The position numbers and the translations under genes are program-made. Source: Planotetraspora mira (lineage in GTDB: Bacteria > Actinomycetota > Actinomycetes > Streptosporangiales > Streptosporangiaceae). Taken from it: DNA of 64,000 nucleotides. Under the pieces are notes generated by a model that was not told the DNA's origin, searched no databases, and was given only the letters and a program-made list of their open reading frames with translations. Below, in pieces: positions 6,309 to 49,836 of the stretch (positions are counted from its first letter, which is position 1; each line of letters begins with the position of its first letter). The stretch covers positions 248,001 to 312,000 of the forward strand of contig NZ_BOOO01000002.1 in the NCBI RefSeq assembly GCF_016863275.1. The letters are read 5' to 3'.

Positions 6309-6480
6309 GTGCATGATCACGGAATGTGTCTTCGCAGGTGAGAGCACACATAAGCGAAAGTGCGCATGATCACGAAGCGCATCGCCGCAGGTCATGCGCG
6401 CTGCCGGCGAATCCATGCATGATCACGCCCAAGGGAGGGGCAGGTCGGCGGGGGTTCGGCCGAACCTGTGCATGATCACG
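6309..6480. repeat. 53-bp-periodic repeat array, locus 1 (four cores)
   Basis: Four copies of the 10-bp core CATGATCACG start at 6312, 6365, 6418 and 6471, exactly 53 bp apart. The 10 bp before each core tends to CGAAnnTGTG, giving a ~20-bp conserved block, and a weaker GCAGGTC lies mid-unit; the rest of each unit varies. The array lies between the stop of hutI (6508) and the start of degV (6273), both leftward genes. Because 53 is not a multiple of three, it is not coding. The same family recurs at 25.07-25.5 kb. The even period, about five helical turns, suggests a phased protein-binding array. Function unknown. Confidence 0.85.
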
Positions 6481-6507: not shown

Positions 6508-7716
6508 TTACTGGACGGGGGTGCCGCCACGCCAGACCCGGCGGGGCTTGAGGCCGTACGACCAGGCGAACGCGCCCTCGTGGTCGGCGTCCCACTGCAC
6601 GATGTCCGCCAGGCGACCCGGCGCGAGGATGCCGCGGTCGGGGGCGCCCAACACCTGGGCTCCGCCCAGCGTCGCCGCGCGAAGCGCGTCCCCCACGCTC
6701 ATCCCGAACGCCGACACGGCCAGGCTGATCACCAGGGCCATCGAGGTGATGCCGCAGTGACCCGGGTTGTGGTCGCTGCCGAGCGCGATCGGGACGCCCT
6801 GGGCGATCATGCGGCGCACCGGGGGAAGGCTGCCACCCTGCAGGGCGGTGGCAGGGCAGACGACGGCCGGCACGCCGTACCTGCCCATCAGCGCGATGTC
6901 CTCGTCAGAGGTGTGGTGGAGCAGGTCGGCGGACGAGCATCCCATCTCGGCGGCCAACTGGACCGCGCCGCGGCGGTTGTAGGCGCCCGCGTGCACGCGG
7001 GGAAGGAGGCCGACGTTGCGGCCGGAGGCGAGCACCCAGCGGGCCTCGTCGACGCTGAAGTGGCCGTCGTCGCAGTAGACGTCCACGCTGTCGGCCCCCG
7101 CGGCGGCGGCGTCCGCGCACCAGGTGGCGACGGCCTCGACGTAGTCACGCTGGCGGCCGAAGTACTCCGGCGGGACCACGTGAGCGGCCAGGAACGTGAC
7201 GTGCACCCGCGGCATCATCGGCTCTTTCTCGAGCTCGCGCAGCAGGCGGACGTCCGCCAGTTCTCCGTCGCGGGTCAGGTGGTAGCCCGTCTTGGCCTCG
7301 ACGGTCGTCGTTCCGGCCAGCAGCCACTCGCGCAGCCTCTCGCGGACGCCGTTGCACAACGTCCACGGGTCGGTGCCGCGGGTCACCGTGACGGTCGAGC
7401 CGATGCCGCCGCCCGCCGCGTTGATCGCGGAGGCCGTGGAGCCGCCCGACCGCATCGCCATCTCGGCGTAGCGGTTCCCGGCGTAGACGGGGTGGGTGTG
7501 GGCGTCGATGAGACCGGGCGTGACGAGGGCGCCGCCGAGGTTCTCCACATGGTCGACGTCGACGATGTCGTTGACGACCCCGGGAACACTCTGGGGCAGG
7601 TCAGCCGCCCGTCCGACCCAGGCGATGCGGTCGTTGTGGACCAGGATGGCCGCGTTGCTGCATACGTCGTGACCGGTCCAGAGCCGGCCGATGTTGGTGA
7701 GCAGCCGAACGGTCAT
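6508..7716 (-). CDS. hutI: imidazolonepropionase
   Basis: The 402-residue amidohydrolase hydrolyses 4-imidazolone-5-propionate to N-formimino-L-glutamate, the third step of histidine degradation. Metal-binding HTH is at residues 73-75 in DAHTHPVYAGNRY, with further ligands in PRVHAGAY and the GSDHNPG loop. Substrate-binding residues typical of HutI are seen in TVEAKTGYHL. Length matches the family. It is the only hut gene in the window, so the rest of the pathway must lie elsewhere. The ATG overlaps the stop of a 30-codon leader frame (7713-7805) in an ATGA arrangement, suggesting that HutI translation is coupled to that leader. Confidence 0.93.
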   Translation of the reverse strand: MTVRLLTNIGRLWTGHDVCSNAAILVHNDRIAWVGRAADLPQSVPGVVNDIVDVDHVENLGGALVTPGLIDAHTHPVYAGNRYAEMAMRSGGSTASAINAAGGGIGSTVTVTRGTDPWTLCNGVRERLREWLLAGTTTVEAKTGYHLTRDGELADVRLLRELEKEPMMPRVHVTFLAAHVVPPEYFGRQRDYVEAVATWCADAAAAGADSVDVYCDDGHFSVDEARWVLASGRNVGLLPRVHAGAYNRRGAVQLAAEMGCSSADLLHHTSDEDIALMGRYGVPAVVCPATALQGGSLPPVRRMIAQGVPIALGSDHNPGHCGITSMALVISLAVSAFGMSVGDALRAATLGGAQVLGAPDRGILAPGRLADIVQWDADHEGAFAWSYGLKPRRVWRGGTPVQ

Positions 7717-19231: not shown

Positions 19232-20331
19232 ACGACGAACTCGACCTGGTCACCCGGGCGCGGCCTGAGGTGCCGGCCTACTCCGCCGCCGCCAAGGCCG
19301 CGGCCCGCCGGAAACTGGCCTCTCCCCCGGCCCGGCGCAAGCCGTACGGCTTCGCGATCGCCGGAGTGGCCGTGGTCGCGGGCGCGAGCGTCGTGGCGGT
19401 CAACGTGCTGGCGGCCGCCCCCGGCGGCAGCGGACGCGCACCGGACGTGACAGCGCTGCCGAAGGTCACGAACATGTCGGCGAGCGAGGTGCTCGGCAGG
19501 GCCGCGCAGGCCGTGACCGACCTCAAGCCGCGGAACAACCAGTTCATCAAGGTCACCTCGCAGACGATGTACGGATCGTTCGGTGGTCACGCTGTGGGTG
19601 GAAGCGATCAGGCTCTACCTGCTCCGCCGCCCCGACCCGACGGTGCCGCGACGAACCCGGCGACTGAGGAGGCCAGCACGGAGTTCCGGTACCTCTACCG
19701 GACGAAGCGGACCATCTGGCTCTCGGCCGACGGCCGCAAGGATGGCGCGCTCAAGGTCGAGCACCTGAAGCCGCGCGCCTATCCGGGCTGGCCCATTCCC
19801 AAGGAGGCCTATGGGGAAGCGGGCCATACCGAATGGTTGATGCTGCCCACCTGCGGCTACGTGCCGGACAGCACCTACACCAAGCTCAAGAGGCTGCCGA
19901 CCGACGCCAAGGGGATGCGCGCCTACCTGTACTCGGGTCCCGACACCAAGAATCCGGCCGACACAGACGCGTGGACCAGGGTGGGTGATCTGCTCAGGGA
20001 GACCTATATGCCGGCGGACCAGCGTGCCGCGCTGTTCAAGGCGGCAGGAACGATCCCCGGAGTCAGGGTGACCGACAACGTGACGGACGCCGCCGGACGC
20101 AGGGGCATCGGCGTCGGCCGGGTGCACGTGGGCATCCGTGAGGATCTCGTCTTCGATGCGAAGACCTTCGAGTTGCTCGGTGAGCGGGGAACCGTCGTCG
20201 ACCCGAAGACGGCGAAAGCACCCCGTGGAAGCGTGGTGGAGGCCACCGCGCGGCTCCAGGTCTCTGTGGAGGACAAGGCCCCGAAGGCGCCGGACCCGAT
20301 CAGCGAGAAGAAGGGCGCGAGCTGCGGCTGA
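19228..20331 (+). CDS. CU044_5270-family membrane-anchored protein
   Basis: The 367-residue product begins with a short cytoplasmic segment and one membrane helix (GFAIAGVAVVAGASVVAVNVLAA, residues about 46-68). A large extracytoplasmic domain with conserved blocks TEFRYLYRTKRTIWLSADG and YMPADQRAALFKAAGTIPGV follows. Actinobacteria typically carry such genes directly after ECF sigma genes, as here (4-nt ATGA overlap). It is therefore likely to modulate that sigma factor from the membrane, though no anti-sigma domain is visible. A strong hairpin lies about 75 bp downstream. Confidence 0.8.
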   Translation: MNDELDLVTRARPEVPAYSAAAKAAARRKLASPPARRKPYGFAIAGVAVVAGASVVAVNVLAAAPGGSGRAPDVTALPKVTNMSASEVLGRAAQAVTDLKPRNNQFIKVTSQTMYGSFGGHAVGGSDQALPAPPPRPDGAATNPATEEASTEFRYLYRTKRTIWLSADGRKDGALKVEHLKPRAYPGWPIPKEAYGEAGHTEWLMLPTCGYVPDSTYTKLKRLPTDAKGMRAYLYSGPDTKNPADTDAWTRVGDLLRETYMPADQRAALFKAAGTIPGVRVTDNVTDAAGRRGIGVGRVHVGIREDLVFDAKTFELLGERGTVVDPKTAKAPRGSVVEATARLQVSVEDKAPKAPDPISEKKGASCG

Positions 20332-24213: not shown

Positions 24214-24987
24214 TCAGGCGCACTGGTCGAGCATCGTCTCCTTGTCCGCGGCCGTGACCGGAAGGTCGTACTTGAGGGAGACCTGGGCGAACCGTACGGC
24301 GTAGGAGCACCGGATGCCCTTGGCGGGCGGCAACCATGACGCCGGGCCCGAGTCGCCCTTGGCCGAGTTGGCCGAGCCGTCCACCGGCAGCAGGTTGAGG
24401 GGGTCGTTGGCGATCCGCTTGCGTTCGGCGTCGCTCCAGCGGGAGGCGCCCATCTGCCAGTCGTAGGACAGCGGCATTACATGGTCGATCTGTACCTCCG
24501 ACGCGTCCTCCTTCCGCCACTCGATGGTGTCGCCCGTGTAGGGGTCGTACAACGTCATCGAGACGACGACACAATCGGAGCCGCTGCGGTACTTGACCTC
24601 CGCCCCGTCCCGCTTGAGCAGGTCGTTGCGGGTGTCGCACCCGTTGTGCGCCAGGGGGACGTCGTCGGCGTTGTCCGCCCACGCGTAGCCGAACTCGTCA
24701 CGGTCGTAACCGGTCTTGGGCCCGCGCCCCTTGGTCGTCACCTTGTCGATCAGGTCACGGGCGTCGGCCCGGTCCTTGTCCGAGGTGATCCGGGCCAGGC
24801 CCGGCTCCACGCCGTCCGGGTTGTCGAGAGGGTTCGTGCCGTGGGACTTCCCGGTGTCGTCACCTTGGGAGTCCTTATGTCCTGGCTGGTCCAGGCTGAG
24901 CCCCTCCGAGGGCCCACATCCGGCGAGTACGGCGATCGCCACCGACATACCGACGAAGATCCGAGATCCGCGCCCGCCCACAGTCAC
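24214..24987 (-). CDS. secreted HNH-family nuclease lipoprotein
   Basis: From GTG 24987 the product is 257 residues with a lipoprotein signal (GSRIFVGMSVAIAVLAGC). The C-terminal half has an HNH/DUF1524-like site: VQIDHVMPLSYDWQMGA, then NDPLNLLPVDGSANSAKGD. This is the DH...N...N...K pattern of secreted actinobacterial nucleases. Conserved cysteines in NGCDTRNDLL and SDCVVV could form a disulfide. The reading frame extends upstream through the 53-bp repeat array to 25119, but that extension is repeat sequence and is excluded. It is probably an exported DNA-degrading enzyme for nutrient scavenging or defence. Confidence 0.82.
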   Translation of the reverse strand: MTVGGRGSRIFVGMSVAIAVLAGCGPSEGLSLDQPGHKDSQGDDTGKSHGTNPLDNPDGVEPGLARITSDKDRADARDLIDKVTTKGRGPKTGYDRDEFGYAWADNADDVPLAHNGCDTRNDLLKRDGAEVKYRSGSDCVVVSMTLYDPYTGDTIEWRKEDASEVQIDHVMPLSYDWQMGASRWSDAERKRIANDPLNLLPVDGSANSAKGDSGPASWLPPAKGIRCSYAVRFAQVSLKYDLPVTAADKETMLDQCA

Positions 24988-25070
24988 CCCTAGGTCATGA
25001 AATTTTCCACCTAGGTATAGCAAATGCCCAAGAACCCGCAAATAAACGTACCCAGTCCACCCTCTCTCGG

Positions 25071-25494
25071 CGTGATCATGCACACATTCGCGTAGAGCAC
25101 CGACGAGCTGGCCGTTCATTGCCCGTGATCATGCACACATTCGGTGATGCACGGCCCGAGCTGCGCAAGCTCATTTCGTGATCATGCACGGATTCGGAGG
25201 AAGGCGCCTTGAACTGGCACGACGACGATCGTGATCATGCAGTGACACTCACCGTTGCGGGCGACGCTCGTACATGATCACGAACAGGGGACGGCCAGGT
25301 CATCCGCCGTTTCCCCGAACTTGCGCATGATCACGATTTGTATCGTGGCCGGTCAGGACGCCTGTCGCCGAATGTGCGCATGATCACGGGCGATGAACGG
25401 CCAGCTCGTCGGTGCTCTACGCGAATGTGTGCATGATCACGACCCAGGGGTGGCCAGGTCAGGGGTGGTATCCACGAACCTGTGCATGATCACG
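25071..25494. repeat. 53-bp-periodic repeat array, locus 2 (two opposed arms, nine cores)
   Basis: Left arm cores read CGTGATCATG at 25071, 25124, 25177 and 25230. Right arm cores read the reverse complement CATGATCACG at 25273, 25326, 25379, 25432 and 25485. Every step within an arm is exactly 53 bp. The arms diverge from a 33-bp centre (25240-25272). Each unit, read outward, is CATGATCACG, about 11 variable bases, a GGCCAGGTC-like block, about 14 variable bases, then CGAATGTGTG. Unit 25081-25133 is the inverted near-copy of 25379-25431. It lies between the HNH nuclease start and a betaine-binding protein stop. It is not coding, and its role is unknown. Confidence 0.9.
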
Positions 25495-25554
25495 GAGTGT
25501 GGGGCGGGCGGGCGGAGTGTGGGGGCCGGGCGGGGAGGTGGGCGAGTGGGGGCG

Positions 25555-26502
25555 TCAGGCGGCGGGGATCCAGTCCTGCCAGACGATCTTGTTCTGCTCG
25601 ACCCACTTCTGGGCTGCGGCCTGCGCGCTCAGTTTCCCGACGGCCATGTCGTAGGCCACGGCGTTCTGGTCGTCGTTGGTCCACACGAAGTTCTTGATCA
25701 GTTCGTACGCCTTGCCACCCTCCGCGGCGAATTTCTTGCTGACGATCTTGTCCAGCAGGTACGGCGGATAGTCGCACGCGACCTTGGCGGGGTTGGCGTC
25801 GCATCCGATCGAGTACGGCGGGAGGTTGATCTTCACCAGCTTCAGCTGGGAGAACAGCCACTGCGGCTCGTAGAAGTACATGAGCAGCGGCTTCTTGTTC
25901 TTGTCGGCGTCCTGCGCCGCCTTGATCAGCGCGTCCTCGCTGCCGGCGTAGACCACCTTGTACGGGAGGTTGAGATTCTTGATCAGCGCGTCGTCGTTGG
26001 TCACGTAGCTCGGATCACCCGCGAGGAATTGCCCCAAATTGCCCGACTTCTCGGTCTGGAACAAGGACTTGTAGGTGACAAGCTTGTGATAGTCCGTGAT
26101 GTCCGGATATTGCTTCACCATCCATTCGGGCACATACCACCCGATGACGCCCTTGTTGCCGTCCTCCCCCGCCGTTAGGGCGACCTTCTTCTCGTCGATG
26201 TACTCCTTCTTCAGCTCCGGGTGGGCCCAGTTCTCCAAAATGGCGTCGACCTTGCCATTCTCGAAGCCCTTCCAGGATTCCGCCTCCGCACTCTCCACAC
26301 GCTCGACTTTGTATCCGAGCTGGTGAACGAGCAGATATTCGACCACGGCGGCGCTGGCCTCGTAGCCGATCCACGGGTTGATGGCCAGGCGCACCGTGCC
26401 GGAGGCGCCTGCACTCGGGCCTCCCGCGTTCTCGGAACTCCCGCTGCACCCGGTCATCGCCAGCGCGATCGTGAGCACCCCGGCAAGAAGACGGACCCTC
26501 AT
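25555..26502 (-). CDS. glycine betaine/choline ABC transporter substrate-binding protein (second copy)
   Basis: The 315-residue lipoprotein begins MRVRLLAGVLTIALAMTGC with lipobox Cys. It has the OpuAC/ProX fold: VRLAINPWIGYEASAAVV, NWAHPELKKEYI, the aromatic ligand-cage segments GWYVPEWMVKQYPDITDY and YEPQWLFSQLKLVK. It closely resembles the protein encoded immediately upstream (26634-27614), pointing to a tandem duplication with divergence. ATG 26502 is preceded by a GAGG-type site. A strong hairpin separates it from the transporter operon, so it may be expressed at a lower or independent level. Confidence 0.9.
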   Translation of the reverse strand: MRVRLLAGVLTIALAMTGCSGSSENAGGPSAGASGTVRLAINPWIGYEASAAVVEYLLVHQLGYKVERVESAEAESWKGFENGKVDAILENWAHPELKKEYIDEKKVALTAGEDGNKGVIGWYVPEWMVKQYPDITDYHKLVTYKSLFQTEKSGNLGQFLAGDPSYVTNDDALIKNLNLPYKVVYAGSEDALIKAAQDADKNKKPLLMYFYEPQWLFSQLKLVKINLPPYSIGCDANPAKVACDYPPYLLDKIVSKKFAAEGGKAYELIKNFVWTNDDQNAVAYDMAVGKLSAQAAAQKWVEQNKIVWQDWIPAA

Positions 26503-26592
26503 AAGTGACCTCATCAGAAGTAGGACGAGCGGCGTGCGCGGGCGACGAGACCGCGGGCGACACCGGCAGAGTATTTCACAACCGAAAGCGGC

Positions 26593-26627
26593 GAATCGGC
26601 CGCGATCCAAAGGATCGCGGCCGATTC
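26593..26627 (-). terminator. perfect 16-bp stem hairpin between the two binding-protein genes
   Basis: GAATCGGCCGCGATCC (26593-26608) and GGATCGCGGCCGATTC (26612-26627) pair perfectly around a 3-nt AAA loop. It lies a few bases after the stop of the first binding-protein gene. It should terminate or attenuate the leftward ABC operon before the second binding-protein gene. Confidence 0.75.
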
Positions 26628-26633
26628 ACTCGA

Positions 26634-27614
26634 TCACTTCGGAATCCAGGCCTGCCACACGGTGGGGTTGGCGTCGACCCACTTCTTGGCGGCGGCCTCG
26701 TCGGACAGGCCGTTGTTGGTGATGTCGTCGGCGACCTTGTTCTGGTCGTCGTTGGACCACGTGAAGTTCTTGATCAGCTCGTAGGCCGGGCCACCGGTCT
26801 CGGCGAACTTCTTGCTCACGATCTTGTCGAGATCGTAGGGCGGGTAGTCACACGCGATCTTCTTGGGATCGGCGTCGCATCCCGGCGTGTACGGCGGGAG
26901 GTTGATCTTCACCAGCTTGAGCTGCGAGAACAGCCACTGCGGCTCGTAGAAGTACATGAGCAGCGGCTTCTGCTGCTGAGTGGCCGTCTGGGCCGCCTTG
27001 ATGAGGGCCGCCTCACTGCCCGCGTAGACGACCTTGTACGGCAGCTTGAGGTTCTTGACGAGGGCCTCGTCGTTGGTGACGTAGGAGGGGTCACCGTCCA
27101 GCAGCTGGCCCTTGCCGTCCGACTCGGAGGTCTTGAACAGGTCGGCGTACTTGGGCAGGTTCTTGTAGTCCGTGATGTCCGGGTACTTCTGGACCATCCA
27201 CTCGGGGACGTACCAGCCGATGACACCCTTGTTGCCGTTCGGGCCCGCCTCGACGGCGACGCCCTTCTCCTCGATGTACTTCTTCTTCAGGTCGTCATGA
27301 CCCCAGTTCTCGAGAACGACGTCGACGTCGCCGGACTCCATGCCCTGCCACGACGGCTCCTCGTTGAGGGTCACCTTCTCGACCTTGTAGTGGAGCTCGT
27401 TCTCCAGCAGGTAGTCGACGACGGCCGCGCTGGCCTCGTACCCGACCCAGCCGTTGATGGCCATCTTGACGGTTCCCGCCGAGCCCGCGGCCGCACCTGC
27501 GGACGCGTTCGCGCTGGGCGCGGCCGAGGAGGTGTCGTCGACCTTCGCGCCGCCACAGGCCGCGGCGCCCAGGCCAAGTACGAGAACACCTGCGATCAGG
27601 CGTAACTTCTTCAT
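26634..27614 (-). CDS. glycine betaine/choline ABC transporter substrate-binding protein
   Basis: The 326-residue lipoprotein starts MKKLRLIAGVLVLGLGAAAC with a lipobox Cys at about residue 20, then a Ser/Ala-rich linker. The binding domain has VKMAINGWVGYEASAAVV, the ligand-cage region GWYVPEWMVQKYPDITDY and YEPQWLFSQLKLVKINLPPY. It captures quaternary ammonium osmoprotectants outside the cell for the fused permease encoded just upstream, whose stop overlaps its ATG (ATGA). The first of two related binding proteins, it is the one within the operon proper. Confidence 0.92.
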   Translation of the reverse strand: MKKLRLIAGVLVLGLGAAACGGAKVDDTSSAAPSANASAGAAAGSAGTVKMAINGWVGYEASAAVVDYLLENELHYKVEKVTLNEEPSWQGMESGDVDVVLENWGHDDLKKKYIEEKGVAVEAGPNGNKGVIGWYVPEWMVQKYPDITDYKNLPKYADLFKTSESDGKGQLLDGDPSYVTNDEALVKNLKLPYKVVYAGSEAALIKAAQTATQQQKPLLMYFYEPQWLFSQLKLVKINLPPYTPGCDADPKKIACDYPPYDLDKIVSKKFAETGGPAYELIKNFTWSNDDQNKVADDITNNGLSDEAAAKKWVDANPTVWQAWIPK

Positions 27615-29535
27615 GCGATCCTCTTCTTTTTGGAGTTCGGGCGCCCGCTGGCGCCCTGCGTGATCCGGTCGAGCATGACTCCGAGCAGGACGAGCGCCAC
27701 GCCGGCCGCCAGTCCCTTGCCGTAGTCCTCCTGCTGCGCGATCCCGGCCACGACGTCATATCCGAGGGCTCCCGCCCCCACCAGCGCGCCGATCACCACC
27801 ATCGCCAGGGTCATCACGATCCCCTGGTTGGCGGCCAGGAGCAGCGAGCTCTTGGCCATCGGAAGCTGGACCTTCCACAGGAGTTGCCGATCGGTCGAAC
27901 CCGCGGACCTGGCCGCCTCCACCACGGTCCCCGGCACCGCCCGTACGCCGTCCTCGACCAGACGTGCGACCACGGGCACCGCGTAGATGAGCGACGCGAT
28001 GATCGCGGTGAACCGCCCGTTGCCGAACAGCGCGACGGCGGGCAGCAGATAGGAGAAGGACGGCATGGTCTGCGCGGCGTCGAGGATCGGCCGCAGCACG
28101 GCGGCGAACCATCTCGACCTGGCCGCGGCGATTCCGAGTGCCAGCCCCACCGCGATCGTGATCACGGAGGCCACCAGCACGATCGTCAGCGTCTCCATGC
28201 CGTGCTCCCACAGGCTCAGAGCCGCGATCGCCACCAGGCACCCCGCAGCCACCAGGCCGGCGCGCAGCCCGCTGAACCGCCACGCGAAGGCCAGCACCGC
28301 GAGGGTGACCAGCCACCAGGGCGCGCTGGTCAGCACGTCCTGAAGCGGGTTGAGCAGTCCGTACGCCACGGTGTCGTTGAGGAAGCCGGTGAACCCGTAC
28401 CAGTTGGCCTCGATCCAGCCGACCACGTCGTTGATCGGGCGCACGATCTGGATCTGCCACTGCTCGGGGAACTCCGGCGCCAGGACCGGGGTGAGCGCGA
28501 GGCCCGCCACGATCGCCACCGCGAAGCCCGCCCAGCGCACGACGGAGGACCGGGCGCGGGAGACCGCGGCGGACCTGGTGATGCGGTCGAGTACGATCGC
28601 GATGATCACGATGGCGATGCCCGGCACGAGCGCGGCGCCCACGTTGACCCGCGCGAGCGCGCGGATGAGGTCCACGCCGAGCCCCGGCGCCGCGATCAGC
28701 GCGACGAGCGGGACCATCGACAGCGCCGCCGCGATCGTCTGGTTGACGCCCAGCGTGATCGTGTTGAGCGCCATCGGGAGCCGGACCTTGCGCAGGGTCT
28801 GGCCGCCGGTCGCGCCCAGCGACTCCGAGGCCTCGACCGCCGTGGGTGAGACGCGCTGGATGGCGAGCGCGGTGATCCGGATCGCCGGCGGGATCGCATA
28901 GATCATCGTGGCGATCGTGGCCGACGCCGGGCCGATGAGGAACAGCAGCACGATCGGCGACAGGTACGAGAACGTCGGCATGATCTGCATGACGTCGAGC
29001 ACCGGGGACACGATCCGCCGGACGCGGGGGGAACGGCCCGCGAGTATGCCGATCGGGATGCCGATGACCAGGGAGAGCAGCACGGAGCTGAGGGTGAGCG
29101 CGAGAGTGTCGACGCTCGCATCCCACAGGCCGAGCGCCCCGATCCCGGCGAATCCGACGACCGACACGAGGGCGATCCGCCAGCCGCCCGCCAGCCAGCC
29201 GAGCCCGGCGGCGACGCCGATGAGCCCCGGCCAGCCGAGAGCGGTCAGCGCCGTCTGGAACAGGGTGAAGAGCTCGGCCACCCCGAGGCGGACGTAGTTG
29301 ATGAAGTACAGGAAGAACGGGCTGGTGTTGCGGTTCTCGTCGACCCAGTCACGGGCGTCGTTGAGCCAGTGGAACAGCGAGGCGTCGTCGTCGTGCGGCA
29401 GCACGGCCGTGTTCTTGAACGCCACGTAGAGCGCCACGACCAGGACGGCCCCGGCCACCGGCAACCATCGGACGAGCCGCTGCGCCCGTTCCCCTACGGG
29501 GACGGGCGGTGCGATGTCGGCGGGGGCGGCCACCA

Positions 29536-29536
<1 letters not shown>
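27611..29536 (-). CDS. glycine betaine/proline-type ABC permease with two fused permease domains
   Basis: The 641-residue membrane protein holds two complete ProW-type permease domains in tandem. The first has SLVIGIPIGILAGRSPRV and the EAA loop EASESLGATGGQTLRKVRLP. The second has LALGIAAARSRWFAAVL and the EAA loop EAARSAGSTDRQLLWKVQLP. Most OpuA/ProW systems use two copies of a single-domain permease, so a fused dimer is less common but known in actinomycetes. The GTG start touches the stop of the ATPase gene (one-base overlap). The encoded protein forms the transmembrane channel for the betaine importer. Confidence 0.92.
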
Positions 29537-30651
<1,115 letters not shown>

Positions 30652-31090
30652 TCTGATTCCCCTCACTCGGCTATCGCCCGAGAAGCGGCGTGAACGCCCG
30701 GGAACGCCACAGCACGGCGTGGAGATCGTCGCTCGCACACCGTGGATGAAGAGCTGGGGGTCAACGACTCCTCATTGGGCATATGCACAGGAGTTGCGCG
30801 ATGCGCAACTCATCGTGTTGAACAGTGATGAGGCTAGGCCCCACCAACCCCACAGATAGCCCTAAATAACACGATAAGCGCCATATCGTGATCATTCAGT
30901 GATCTATGCATCCGAGCCTTGGGCGCGCGCCTGCGTGGCCGCGGGAACCACGGCGGTACAGGGAAAGCCGCCTACCTGGAAAGGCTTCGGGCCCGCCGTC
31001 CGATGGACAGGCCTGGTCACCAGATGGGACACGTAACCATCAGGTGGGACGGCGCGGCGCCGGCCAGGGGGCCGTCACGCCGCCGATCCG
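30652..31090. other. regulatory region upstream of the betaine importer operon
   Basis: About 440 bp without a convincing gene. It contains a perfect dyad at 30791-30811 and an A/T-rich stretch near 30830-30900, consistent with the importer promoter. A lone degenerate copy of the 53-bp array core (CGTGATCATT at 30887-30896) also lies here. The right part (30900-31090) shows nothing recognisable. Confidence 0.45.
30791..30811. promoter_or_regulatory. perfect 21-bp dyad, candidate operator of the betaine importer
   Basis: GAGTTGCGC (30791-30799) and GCGCAACTC (30803-30811) are perfect 9-bp arms around GAT, about 140 bp upstream of the ATPase start. The TTGCGC/GCGCAA form is typical of sites bound by dimeric helix-turn-helix repressors. 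The cognate protein is not adjacent. Confidence 0.5.
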
Positions 31091-48489: not shown

Positions 48490-48843
48490 ATGTCGATCTC
48501 CGATGTCGCCGAACGCACCGGACTTTTGACGCACGCTGCGCTACTACGAGCGCGAAGGGCTCATGTTCGCGCCGGTCGACCGGGCGTCGTCGACGCATCG
48601 CCGGTACACCGAGGCCGACCTCAACTGGGTGACCTTTCTCACCAAGCTGCGCATGACCTCGATGCCCATCGCCAAGATGCGCGAATACGTCGAGCTCGCC
48701 TGCCGCGGCGACGAAAGCACCGCGGAACGGCTCGAACTGCTGCTCATCCACCGGATGAACGTCGAGCGCCAACTCGGGGAGATGACGGCGAGCCTCGCCG
48801 CTATCGACTACAAGATCGGTCTCTATCAGGAAAGGCTATCCAC

Positions 48844-48847
<4 letters not shown>
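48490..48847 (+). pseudogene. MerR-family regulator disrupted by a frameshift
   Basis: ATG 48490 opens with [14 protein letters not shown], the first helix-turn-helix of a MerR protein. The expected continuation [11 protein letters not shown] is found one frame over, from 48533, then runs intact ([56 protein letters not shown]) to the stop at 48847. Removing a single base near 48531 restores an uninterrupted MerR of normal length. It is therefore a recent pseudogene or a sequencing error. Its stop overlaps the aldo/keto reductase start (ATGA), a common pairing. Confidence 0.8.

Positions 48848-49836
<989 letters not shown>

What the first reader, a model, noticed from the sequence alone, without database searches (positions are those of the whole stretch)
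25071..25494. Two-armed inverted array with an exact 53-bp period
Nine 10-bp cores (CGTGATCATG or its complement) occur at 25071, 25124, 25177, 25230 and then, in opposite orientation, 25273, 25326, 25379, 25432, 25485. Each step is exactly 53 bp. Every unit has the boundary block CGAATGTGTG|CATGATCACG and a weaker central GGCCAGGTC, with variable filler. 53 bp is about five turns of B-DNA, so all cores face the same side. The flip around a 33-bp centre is like a centromere, an origin or an architectural-protein site, not a gene. I know of no named element of this form.
Basis: seen in the sequence. Interest (0 to 1): 0.85.

Follow-up and report, generated by a model that had tools for sequence, protein, structure and literature searches.

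The report
Phased repeat arrays at gene ends
A soil actinomycete carries an estimated 150 copies of a precisely spaced DNA repeat array, mostly just after the ends of ordinary genes where other gene ends have a stop hairpin, which may be an undescribed way of fencing one gene off from the next.

Summary
The array is real: nine exact cores at the stated places, steps of exactly 53 bp, a flip over a 33-bp centre. It belongs to a family: 563 core pairs at exactly 53 bp in this genome, 0 in the reversed control, about 146 loci by proportion. All 5 Planotetraspora genomes searched have it. In the Planotetraspora-type loci read, two-armed arrays are always '-' then '+'. Outer ends face a gene 3' end in 150 of 215 arms, 32 with the TGA stop inside the outermost core. 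Array-bearing gene ends lack the strong hairpin of other convergent ends. Scattered Actinomycetes carry simpler relatives at gene ends: single cores or core hairpins with genome-specific tags. RAYT, phage and plasmid origins are not supported. Best reading: a polar, factor-dependent terminator or insulator made of DNA-phased protein sites. Spacing, polarity and position are shown; the protein and termination are inferred. Centromere or origin is not supported; an architectural-protein site stays open.

The parts
25071..25239 (-). Left arm: 4 cores (CGTGATCATG at 25071, 25124, 25177, 25230), 53-bp steps; outer end 123 bp before the predicted start of the HNH lipoprotein gene
25240..25272 (.). 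33-bp centre of the V (core starts 43 bp apart; the commonest family value is 27)
25273..25494 (+). Right arm: 5 cores (CATGATCACG at 25273, 25326, 25379, 25432, 25485), linkers with a GCAGGTC-like middle motif and a CGAAnnTGTG-like block
25495..25554 (-). Flank between outermost core and the opuAC stop; G-rich on +, so C-rich and G-poor in the sense of the incoming transcript, as in the family
25555..26610 (-). Glycine betaine substrate-binding protein (OpuAC) gene whose 3' end the right arm faces
24214..24948 (-). Predicted protein with GmrSD_C/HNH nuclease domain (lipoprotein by eye); its 5' end faces the left arm
6312..6480 (+). Second member in the window: one-armed array of 4 cores, 28 bp from the 3' end of the minus-strand gene at 6508-7716
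   Evidence: C2:254312-254480 minus 248000

Best explanation
The array is a polar transcription fence at gene ends. A transcript leaving a gene meets a C-rich, G-poor stretch and then a series of sites, GTGATCATGCA plus a species tag, set about five helical turns apart with a second motif (GCAGGTC) between. I propose that a cognate DNA-binding protein binds each core and, because the cores lie on one face at a fixed distance, cooperates along the arm. The bound arm stalls RNA polymerase coming from the gene, and release follows, perhaps with Rho loaded on the C-rich leader. One arm guards one gene end; two arms back to back (V) guard two convergent genes, or a gene end and the next promoter. 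Shown: family, spacing, polarity, link to gene 3' ends, C-rich entry, weaker hairpins at array ends, gain and loss of whole units. Inferred: the protein, cooperative binding, stalling, termination, Rho.
For: Outer ends face gene 3' ends in 88 of 121 V arms and 62 of 94 single arms; 32 of those 150 have the stop TGA inside the outermost core. V arrays lie in 29 convergent, 23 tandem and 4 divergent regions of 56, against 105, 394 and 105 of 604 regions in own C1+C2. Entry flank C 50%, G 21% (151 arms) against 37% and 34% after 778 stops without array. Best 50-nt fold at array-bearing 3' ends: median -18.4, n=33; at convergent ends without array: -29.7, n=146, p=1e-11; shuffles -16.7 and -23.4. 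Same-orientation steps of 43-63 bp are exactly 53 in 154 of 164 cases in the fetched stretches of G000, G204 and G203 and 394 of 446 in the named loci, while linkers differ widely. In the G000/P. silvatica pairs that aligned, and in P. phitsanulokensis, arms differ by whole 53-bp units. In other genera 58 of 65 outermost units within 60 bp of a gene edge face a 3' end (p=4e-11), with C 54%, G 19% entry flanks. G086 has steps of 41 and 53, near whole turns. Flanking genes look ordinary and mixed (by eye; only window genes were scanned).
Against: No binding protein was identified and no transcript data exist here. 65 of 215 arms face a 5' end, and they have the same C-rich flank. In own C1+C2 alone the 3' excess (15:7 V, 8:3 single) is not significant. 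Where the stop codon lies in the first core, a block there would cut the mRNA before its stop, so the block would have to lie deeper. The hairpin contrast is partly built in, since the array fills the 130 nt measured, and composition explains part. Where P. phitsanulokensis lost or shortened arrays, hairpins did not consistently take over. Steps near 42 or 63 bp are few (42: 3, 62: 1), so length, not only helical face, is kept. Arm lengths of a V are not correlated (rho 0.155, p=0.22). Other genera also have '+-' pairs (7 against 44 '-+' within 60 bp).
Confidence: 0.42

Rival explanations
1. REP-like interspersed repeat: a proliferating, partly palindromic element, once mobile or driven, tolerated at gene 3' ends, with arms growing and shrinking by recombination between cores. 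Any effect on genes is secondary.
For: Patchy distribution (5 of 15 Microbispora; G432 has 40 inverted pairs, G388 of the same genus none). Hairpin forms at gene ends elsewhere. Genome-specific consensus. Unit-wise contraction in P. phitsanulokensis. Slightly raised likeness of units within a locus.
Against: Y1_Tnp (RAYT) is absent from 7 of 13 array-bearing genomes, the own one among them, while 6 of 10 Microbispora without arrays have it; it is in 1 of 13 further genomes. No target duplication was seen by eye at the one clean empty site of P. phitsanulokensis (27.8 kb of C1). Linkers differ while length is held.
Confidence: 0.25
2. RNA-level element: the 3' UTR sequence or its hairpin is read in RNA, as a hairpin terminator or a decay-protecting 3' end.
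For: In other genera the element is often a strong hairpin. In G021 inner stems match locus by locus (38 different hairpins, z 7.2; z 3.3 within the ATGC type). In 24 pooled hairpins of several genomes stems and outer flanks match beyond shuffles across genomes, and the A/T position pairs in 24 of 24.
Against: With shuffles kept within each genome, 37 hairpins of ten other sets show no excess (outer z 1.6, inner z -0.4). In Planotetraspora outer flanks of 65 V arrays are not complementary beyond chance (z -0.4; inner 5 nt z 2.6, 8 nt z 1.6). Block and middle motif are not among the 25 top covarying pairs. Many arrays are one-armed; no hairpin-plus-T-run in 24900-25700. A fixed 53-nt register has no obvious reason in RNA.
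Confidence: 0.18
3. Chromosome-architecture or gyrase-type site: a nucleoid protein or topoisomerase binds the phased arrays to bridge loci or to absorb positive supercoils between convergent genes.
For: Many scattered loci, near-exact helical phasing, enrichment between convergent genes.
Against: Polarity tied to gene 3' ends, single arms and stop codons inside the first core are not needed for it. No long-range data here.
Confidence: 0.1
4. DNA-uptake-type recognition word with species dialects, reused as terminators, as in Neisseria and Haemophilus.
For: Conserved core plus genome-specific tag, inverted pairs at gene ends.
Against: Hundreds rather than a thousand or more copies per genome; 10 of 194 cores in fetched loci of other genera lay inside predicted genes (loci were fetched around elements). 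Competence was not examined.
Confidence: 0.05

Closest known systems
REP/BIME elements with RAYT transposases (PMC3733652: listed abstract and one passage seen)
   Same: Extragenic, at gene 3' ends, palindromic form in several genera, many copies, genome-specific consensus
   Different: No Y1_Tnp in the own genome; directional tandem units at a 53-bp register; a 10-12 bp core rather than a GTAG or CGTC tag
DUS/USS uptake words paired as terminators (PMC1852404: passages seen; dialects PMC3630211: listed abstract only)
   Same: Conserved word, inverted pairs forming gene-end hairpins, species dialects
   Different: Fewer copies, few inside genes in the loci read, tandem phased arms, no competence link shown
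BOX elements of pneumococcus (PMC3049150: listed abstract only; module structure recalled)
   Same: Intergenic element with variable numbers of inner tandem units
   Different: Not a two-armed V and no fixed 53-bp register (recalled)
Mycobacterial MIRU repeats, some of 53 bp (recalled, not looked up)
   Same: Actinobacterial intergenic tandem repeats of like length
   Different: MIRU units are alike along their length and lie in one orientation (recalled); here only core, block and middle motif are kept and two arms diverge
Roadblock terminators of eukaryotes: TTF-I Sal boxes, Reb1 (recalled)
   Same: Polar protein-bound sites after gene ends, as a model of action
   Different: No bacterial counterpart came up in the searches made; the protein is not identified

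Membership tests
REP/BIME with RAYT | Dedicated Y1 transposase (TnpA-REP) in the genome | tested here: not met
   PF01797: none in G000 and in 6 more of 13 array-bearing genomes; 1 of 13 genomes (12 of them element-bearing)
REP/BIME with RAYT | Extragenic, at gene 3' ends | tested here: met
   a majority, not all
DUS/USS | About 1,000 or more copies, many in coding DNA | tested here: not met
   685 TGCAWGATCACG in G000, at most 943 (G205) among 342 genomes; 10 of 194 cores inside predicted genes (loci fetched around elements)
DUS/USS | Promotes DNA uptake | not testable with these tools
   needs a transformation assay
Intrinsic (Rho-independent) terminator | GC-rich stem-loop followed by a T-run | tested here: not met
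   0 found in 24900-25700; array ends fold weakly
Rho-dependent terminator | C-rich, G-poor RNA before the stop zone | tested here: met
   C 50%, G 21% in the 20-nt entry flank
Rho-dependent terminator | Termination depends on Rho | not testable with these tools
   needs transcription assays
CRISPR array | Identical repeats, unrelated spacers, cas genes | tested here: not met
   linkers share GCAGGTC and CGAA motifs and arms are inverted; no cas gene among the eight window genes scanned; cas genes were not sought genome-wide
MITE | Conserved interior and target-site duplication | tested here: inconclusive
   interiors vary; no duplication seen by eye at one clean empty site of G203
Centromere or replication origin | One or few sites per replicon | tested here: not met
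   563 core pairs, about 146 loci estimated

The most novel reading that the evidence does not exclude
A previously undescribed class of bacterial gene punctuation: polar nucleoprotein arrays, built on a DNA register of about five turns and read with a species-specific tag, that stop RNA polymerase at gene ends in place of hairpin terminators, evolved from a conserved-core gene-end hairpin scattered through the Actinomycetes together with an unknown, apparently transferable cognate protein.
Probability: 0.33. Interest if true: 0.92.

Novelty: new variant of a known kind. Interest (0 to 1): 0.75.

Why it matters
If right, some high-GC actinomycetes would have a protein-based, directional terminator that can be found by sequence alone and tested by deleting one array. 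The forms seen, from single core to hairpin to phased arms, with dialects by genome, also give a way to find the cognate protein by comparing close relatives with and without the element, for example within Microbispora.

Tried and rejected
Plasmid and phage DNA search with the window array: no match. Exact-pattern scan of viral contigs: 0. A looser 14-base viral scan gave one match in each of the 80 rows shown of 120 and was read as chance. Rfam: 0 in the window. tRNA: none. RAYT as the mover: not supported. Giant RNA hairpin from the two arms: outer flanks and arm lengths do not support it; mirror units are slightly more alike (0.41 and 0.40 against 0.36 for non-mirror and 0.34 for random loci; 8.4% and 6.5% of pairs at 0.7 or more against 1.7% and 0.4%), which I read as local duplication. 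Pairing between block and middle motif: not among the top 25 pairs. Period scan of 80 kb each of G065, G156, G213 and G300: no like array seen in the top periods; G086 gave steps of 41 and 53. A gene recurring beside elements in several genomes, as rayt would: only four cross-genome pairs of common enzyme families, 27-36% identical. Empty-site test in G388: intergenic DNA too diverged to align. Literature: no description of this element in searches of the held library.

Mended on checking: the complementarity of hairpin stems came from shuffles across genomes; within genomes it is absent in 37 hairpins and present in G021. One search counted one Microbispora locus twice (L066 and L199); one search replaces it. 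One of the five G000/P. silvatica pairs (27.8 kb) was taken from the wrong stretch and tells nothing.

Rows dropped: L057 (Anaerolineae, read as chance) and L066 were left out of the pooled counts, but not. Repeated loci were removed by identical sequence; one search was not de-duplicated. Related species are not independent, so pooled p-values are too small; this holds for too (G000 and P. silvatica). Genes were called with my own simple script.

Full report
What is there. The window holds nine exact copies of a 10-bp core at the stated coordinates, four reading CGTGATCATG and then five reading CATGATCACG, every step 53 bp, with 33 bp between the arms. It lies between an opuAC-type gene (25555-26610, minus) and a gene with a GmrSD_C/HNH domain (24214-24948, minus). 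No Rfam family or tRNA is found in the window and no hairpin-plus-T-run in 24900-25700.

It is one of a genome-wide family. The own genome (9.03 Mb, 100 contigs) has 288 forward and 275 reverse pairs of the core at exactly 53 bp, and none of the reversed control. In the 702 kb of C1 and C2 that I read, 85 such pairs fall in 22 intergenic regions, so about 146 loci are expected by proportion. All 5 genomes of the genus have it: 563, 366, 101, 568 and 553 pairs; G058 of another genus has 284. That G058 is Planotetraspora sp. A-T 1434 is inferred from its unit dialect.

Anatomy. An arm is core-linker-core-linker-core. The own-genome unit consensus (86 units) is CATGATCACG...gG.GT..GcGCAGGTCaGggGgc.t.tc.CCGAAcCTGTG. 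Inner ends lack the CGAA block in their consensus and outer ends stop at a core. Same-orientation steps between 43 and 63 bp are 53 in 154 of 164 cases in the fetched stretches of G000, G204 and G203 and in 394 of 446 in named loci; 52 and 54 are the main exceptions, and an extra core-like word 18 bp before the next gives paired steps of 35 and 18. Linkers are otherwise diverse: identity at variable positions is 0.34 between random loci, 0.39 within an arm, 0.40 to 0.41 at mirror positions, 0.36 at non-mirror positions of opposite arms. Neighbouring arms are '-' then '+' in 65 V arrays; no '+-' was seen among these loci. The commonest distance between the two inner cores is 27 bp (14 of 65), about half of 53.

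Position. In C1+C2 the 22 array regions are 9 of 105 convergent, 11 of 394 tandem and 2 of 105 divergent. Over de-duplicated arms of all species the outer end faces a gene 3' end in 88 of 121 V arms and 62 of 94 single arms, and in 32 of these 150 the TGA stop lies inside the outermost core. In own C1+C2 alone the excess points the same way but is not significant (15:7 and 8:3). The 20 nt before the outermost core are C-rich and G-poor (C 50%, G 21%; 151 arms), against 37% and 34% after 778 stops without array; 65 arms facing 5' ends have nearly the same flank (48%, 22%). Array-bearing 3' ends lack a strong hairpin (median -18.4, n=33) where convergent ends without array have one (median -29.7, n=146); shuffled values are -16.7 and -23.4, so composition explains part, and the array itself fills the stretch measured.

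Evolution. At 13 array regions of C1, P. silvatica has arms at 12 (one neighbour gene was not found), and P. phitsanulokensis has arms of two or more cores at 7 and none at 6, though single cores remain at some of the 6. In the alignments that worked, length changes inside arms are whole 53-bp units; 52- and 54-bp steps show that one-base changes also occur. At the region before a thiI-like gene (name recalled) the marked cores are 5|5 in G000, 5|5 in G204, 3|6 in G202, 4|4 in G205 and 1|1 in G203, some off register; G058 has one arm of three; G075, G212 and G086 have none. GC-rich hairpins are visible there by eye in G075 and G212. Where P. phitsanulokensis has reduced arrays, hairpins did not consistently replace them (best folds -8.7 to -43.8).

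Relatives. A looser pattern finds arms in 5 of 15 Microbispora (G066 36, G070 41, G072 34, G075 124, G076 9; the other 10 none), in g51 (37 and 156), and three or fewer in most others. Fetched Microbispora arms often have three cores with a special outermost unit, TGCGACAAACTACAAGATCACG. G086 has steps of 41 and 53. Core words are also high in g5, g7, g12, g34 and in G341 of another family, where many form inverted pairs. Of 394 genomes sampled from the class 7 have an inverted pair; five of these lie outside the order, in families f30, f32, f33 and f42. There the layout is again stop codon, C-rich tract, GTGATCATGCA, genome-specific tag, singly, in tandem or paired. Over fetched loci of other genera 58 of 65 outermost units within 60 bp of a gene edge, and 95 of 133 in all, face a 3' end; 10 of 194 cores lie inside predicted genes; neighbours of opposite orientation within 60 bp are 44 '-+' and 7 '+-'. 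In G021 the inner stems match locus by locus (38 hairpins, z 7.2); in 37 hairpins of other genomes they do not beyond within-genome shuffles, so the pooled result mainly reflects tags that differ between genomes.

What it is not. RAYT is missing from the own genome and many others; no phage, plasmid or exact viral match; in Planotetraspora the flanks of the two arms are not kept complementary (outer z -0.4; inner 5 nt z 2.6). Centromere and origin do not fit the number. Uptake words differ in number and, in the loci read, in placement. Flanking genes look ordinary and mixed.

Reading. Position, polarity, C-rich entry and the weaker hairpins point to transcription ending or insulation. Near-exact spacing with diverse linkers, a second fixed motif and the lack of hairpin pairing in the genus point to protein on DNA rather than RNA folding. 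I therefore propose a polar, protein-bound terminator array at confidence 0.42. The step I cannot show is the protein. The strongest points against are the 5'-facing arms, the stop codons inside first cores and the partly built-in hairpin contrast.

Literature. Passages of PMC1852404 (paired uptake words as terminators) and one of PMC3733652 (REPs and gyrase) were read by term search; PMC3630211 and PMC3049150 were seen in listing only. Searches found no description of this element in the held library, going by titles and abstract starts. MIRU, TTF-I and Reb1 are recalled.

Noticed in passing
window 6312-6480: A second, one-armed array of four '+' cores, 28 bp from the 3' end of a minus-strand gene that resembles imidazolonepropionase (recalled, not scanned).
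   Followed up: partly
65 units from 17 named P. thailandica loci: Their consensus block is CGAACTTCTG instead of CGAACCTGTG: a species-wide dialect change.
   Followed up: partly
L022 (own C1:270255-270423) and others: Some linkers hold an extra core-like word 18 bp before the next core (7 and 14 steps of 18 bp).
   Followed up: no
L194, with near forms in L193, L197, L198, L201: Some Microbispora V centres are palindromes; L194 has the perfect CGTGATCATGCAATTGCATGATCACG.
   Followed up: partly
own C1 about 48821-48990 and 19755-19820: Short unrelated direct repeats with 33- and 36-bp periods came up in the period scan.
   Followed up: no
window 24214-30738: A GmrSD_C/HNH nuclease gene beside a glycine betaine transporter cluster with two OpuAC paralogues.
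   Followed up: no
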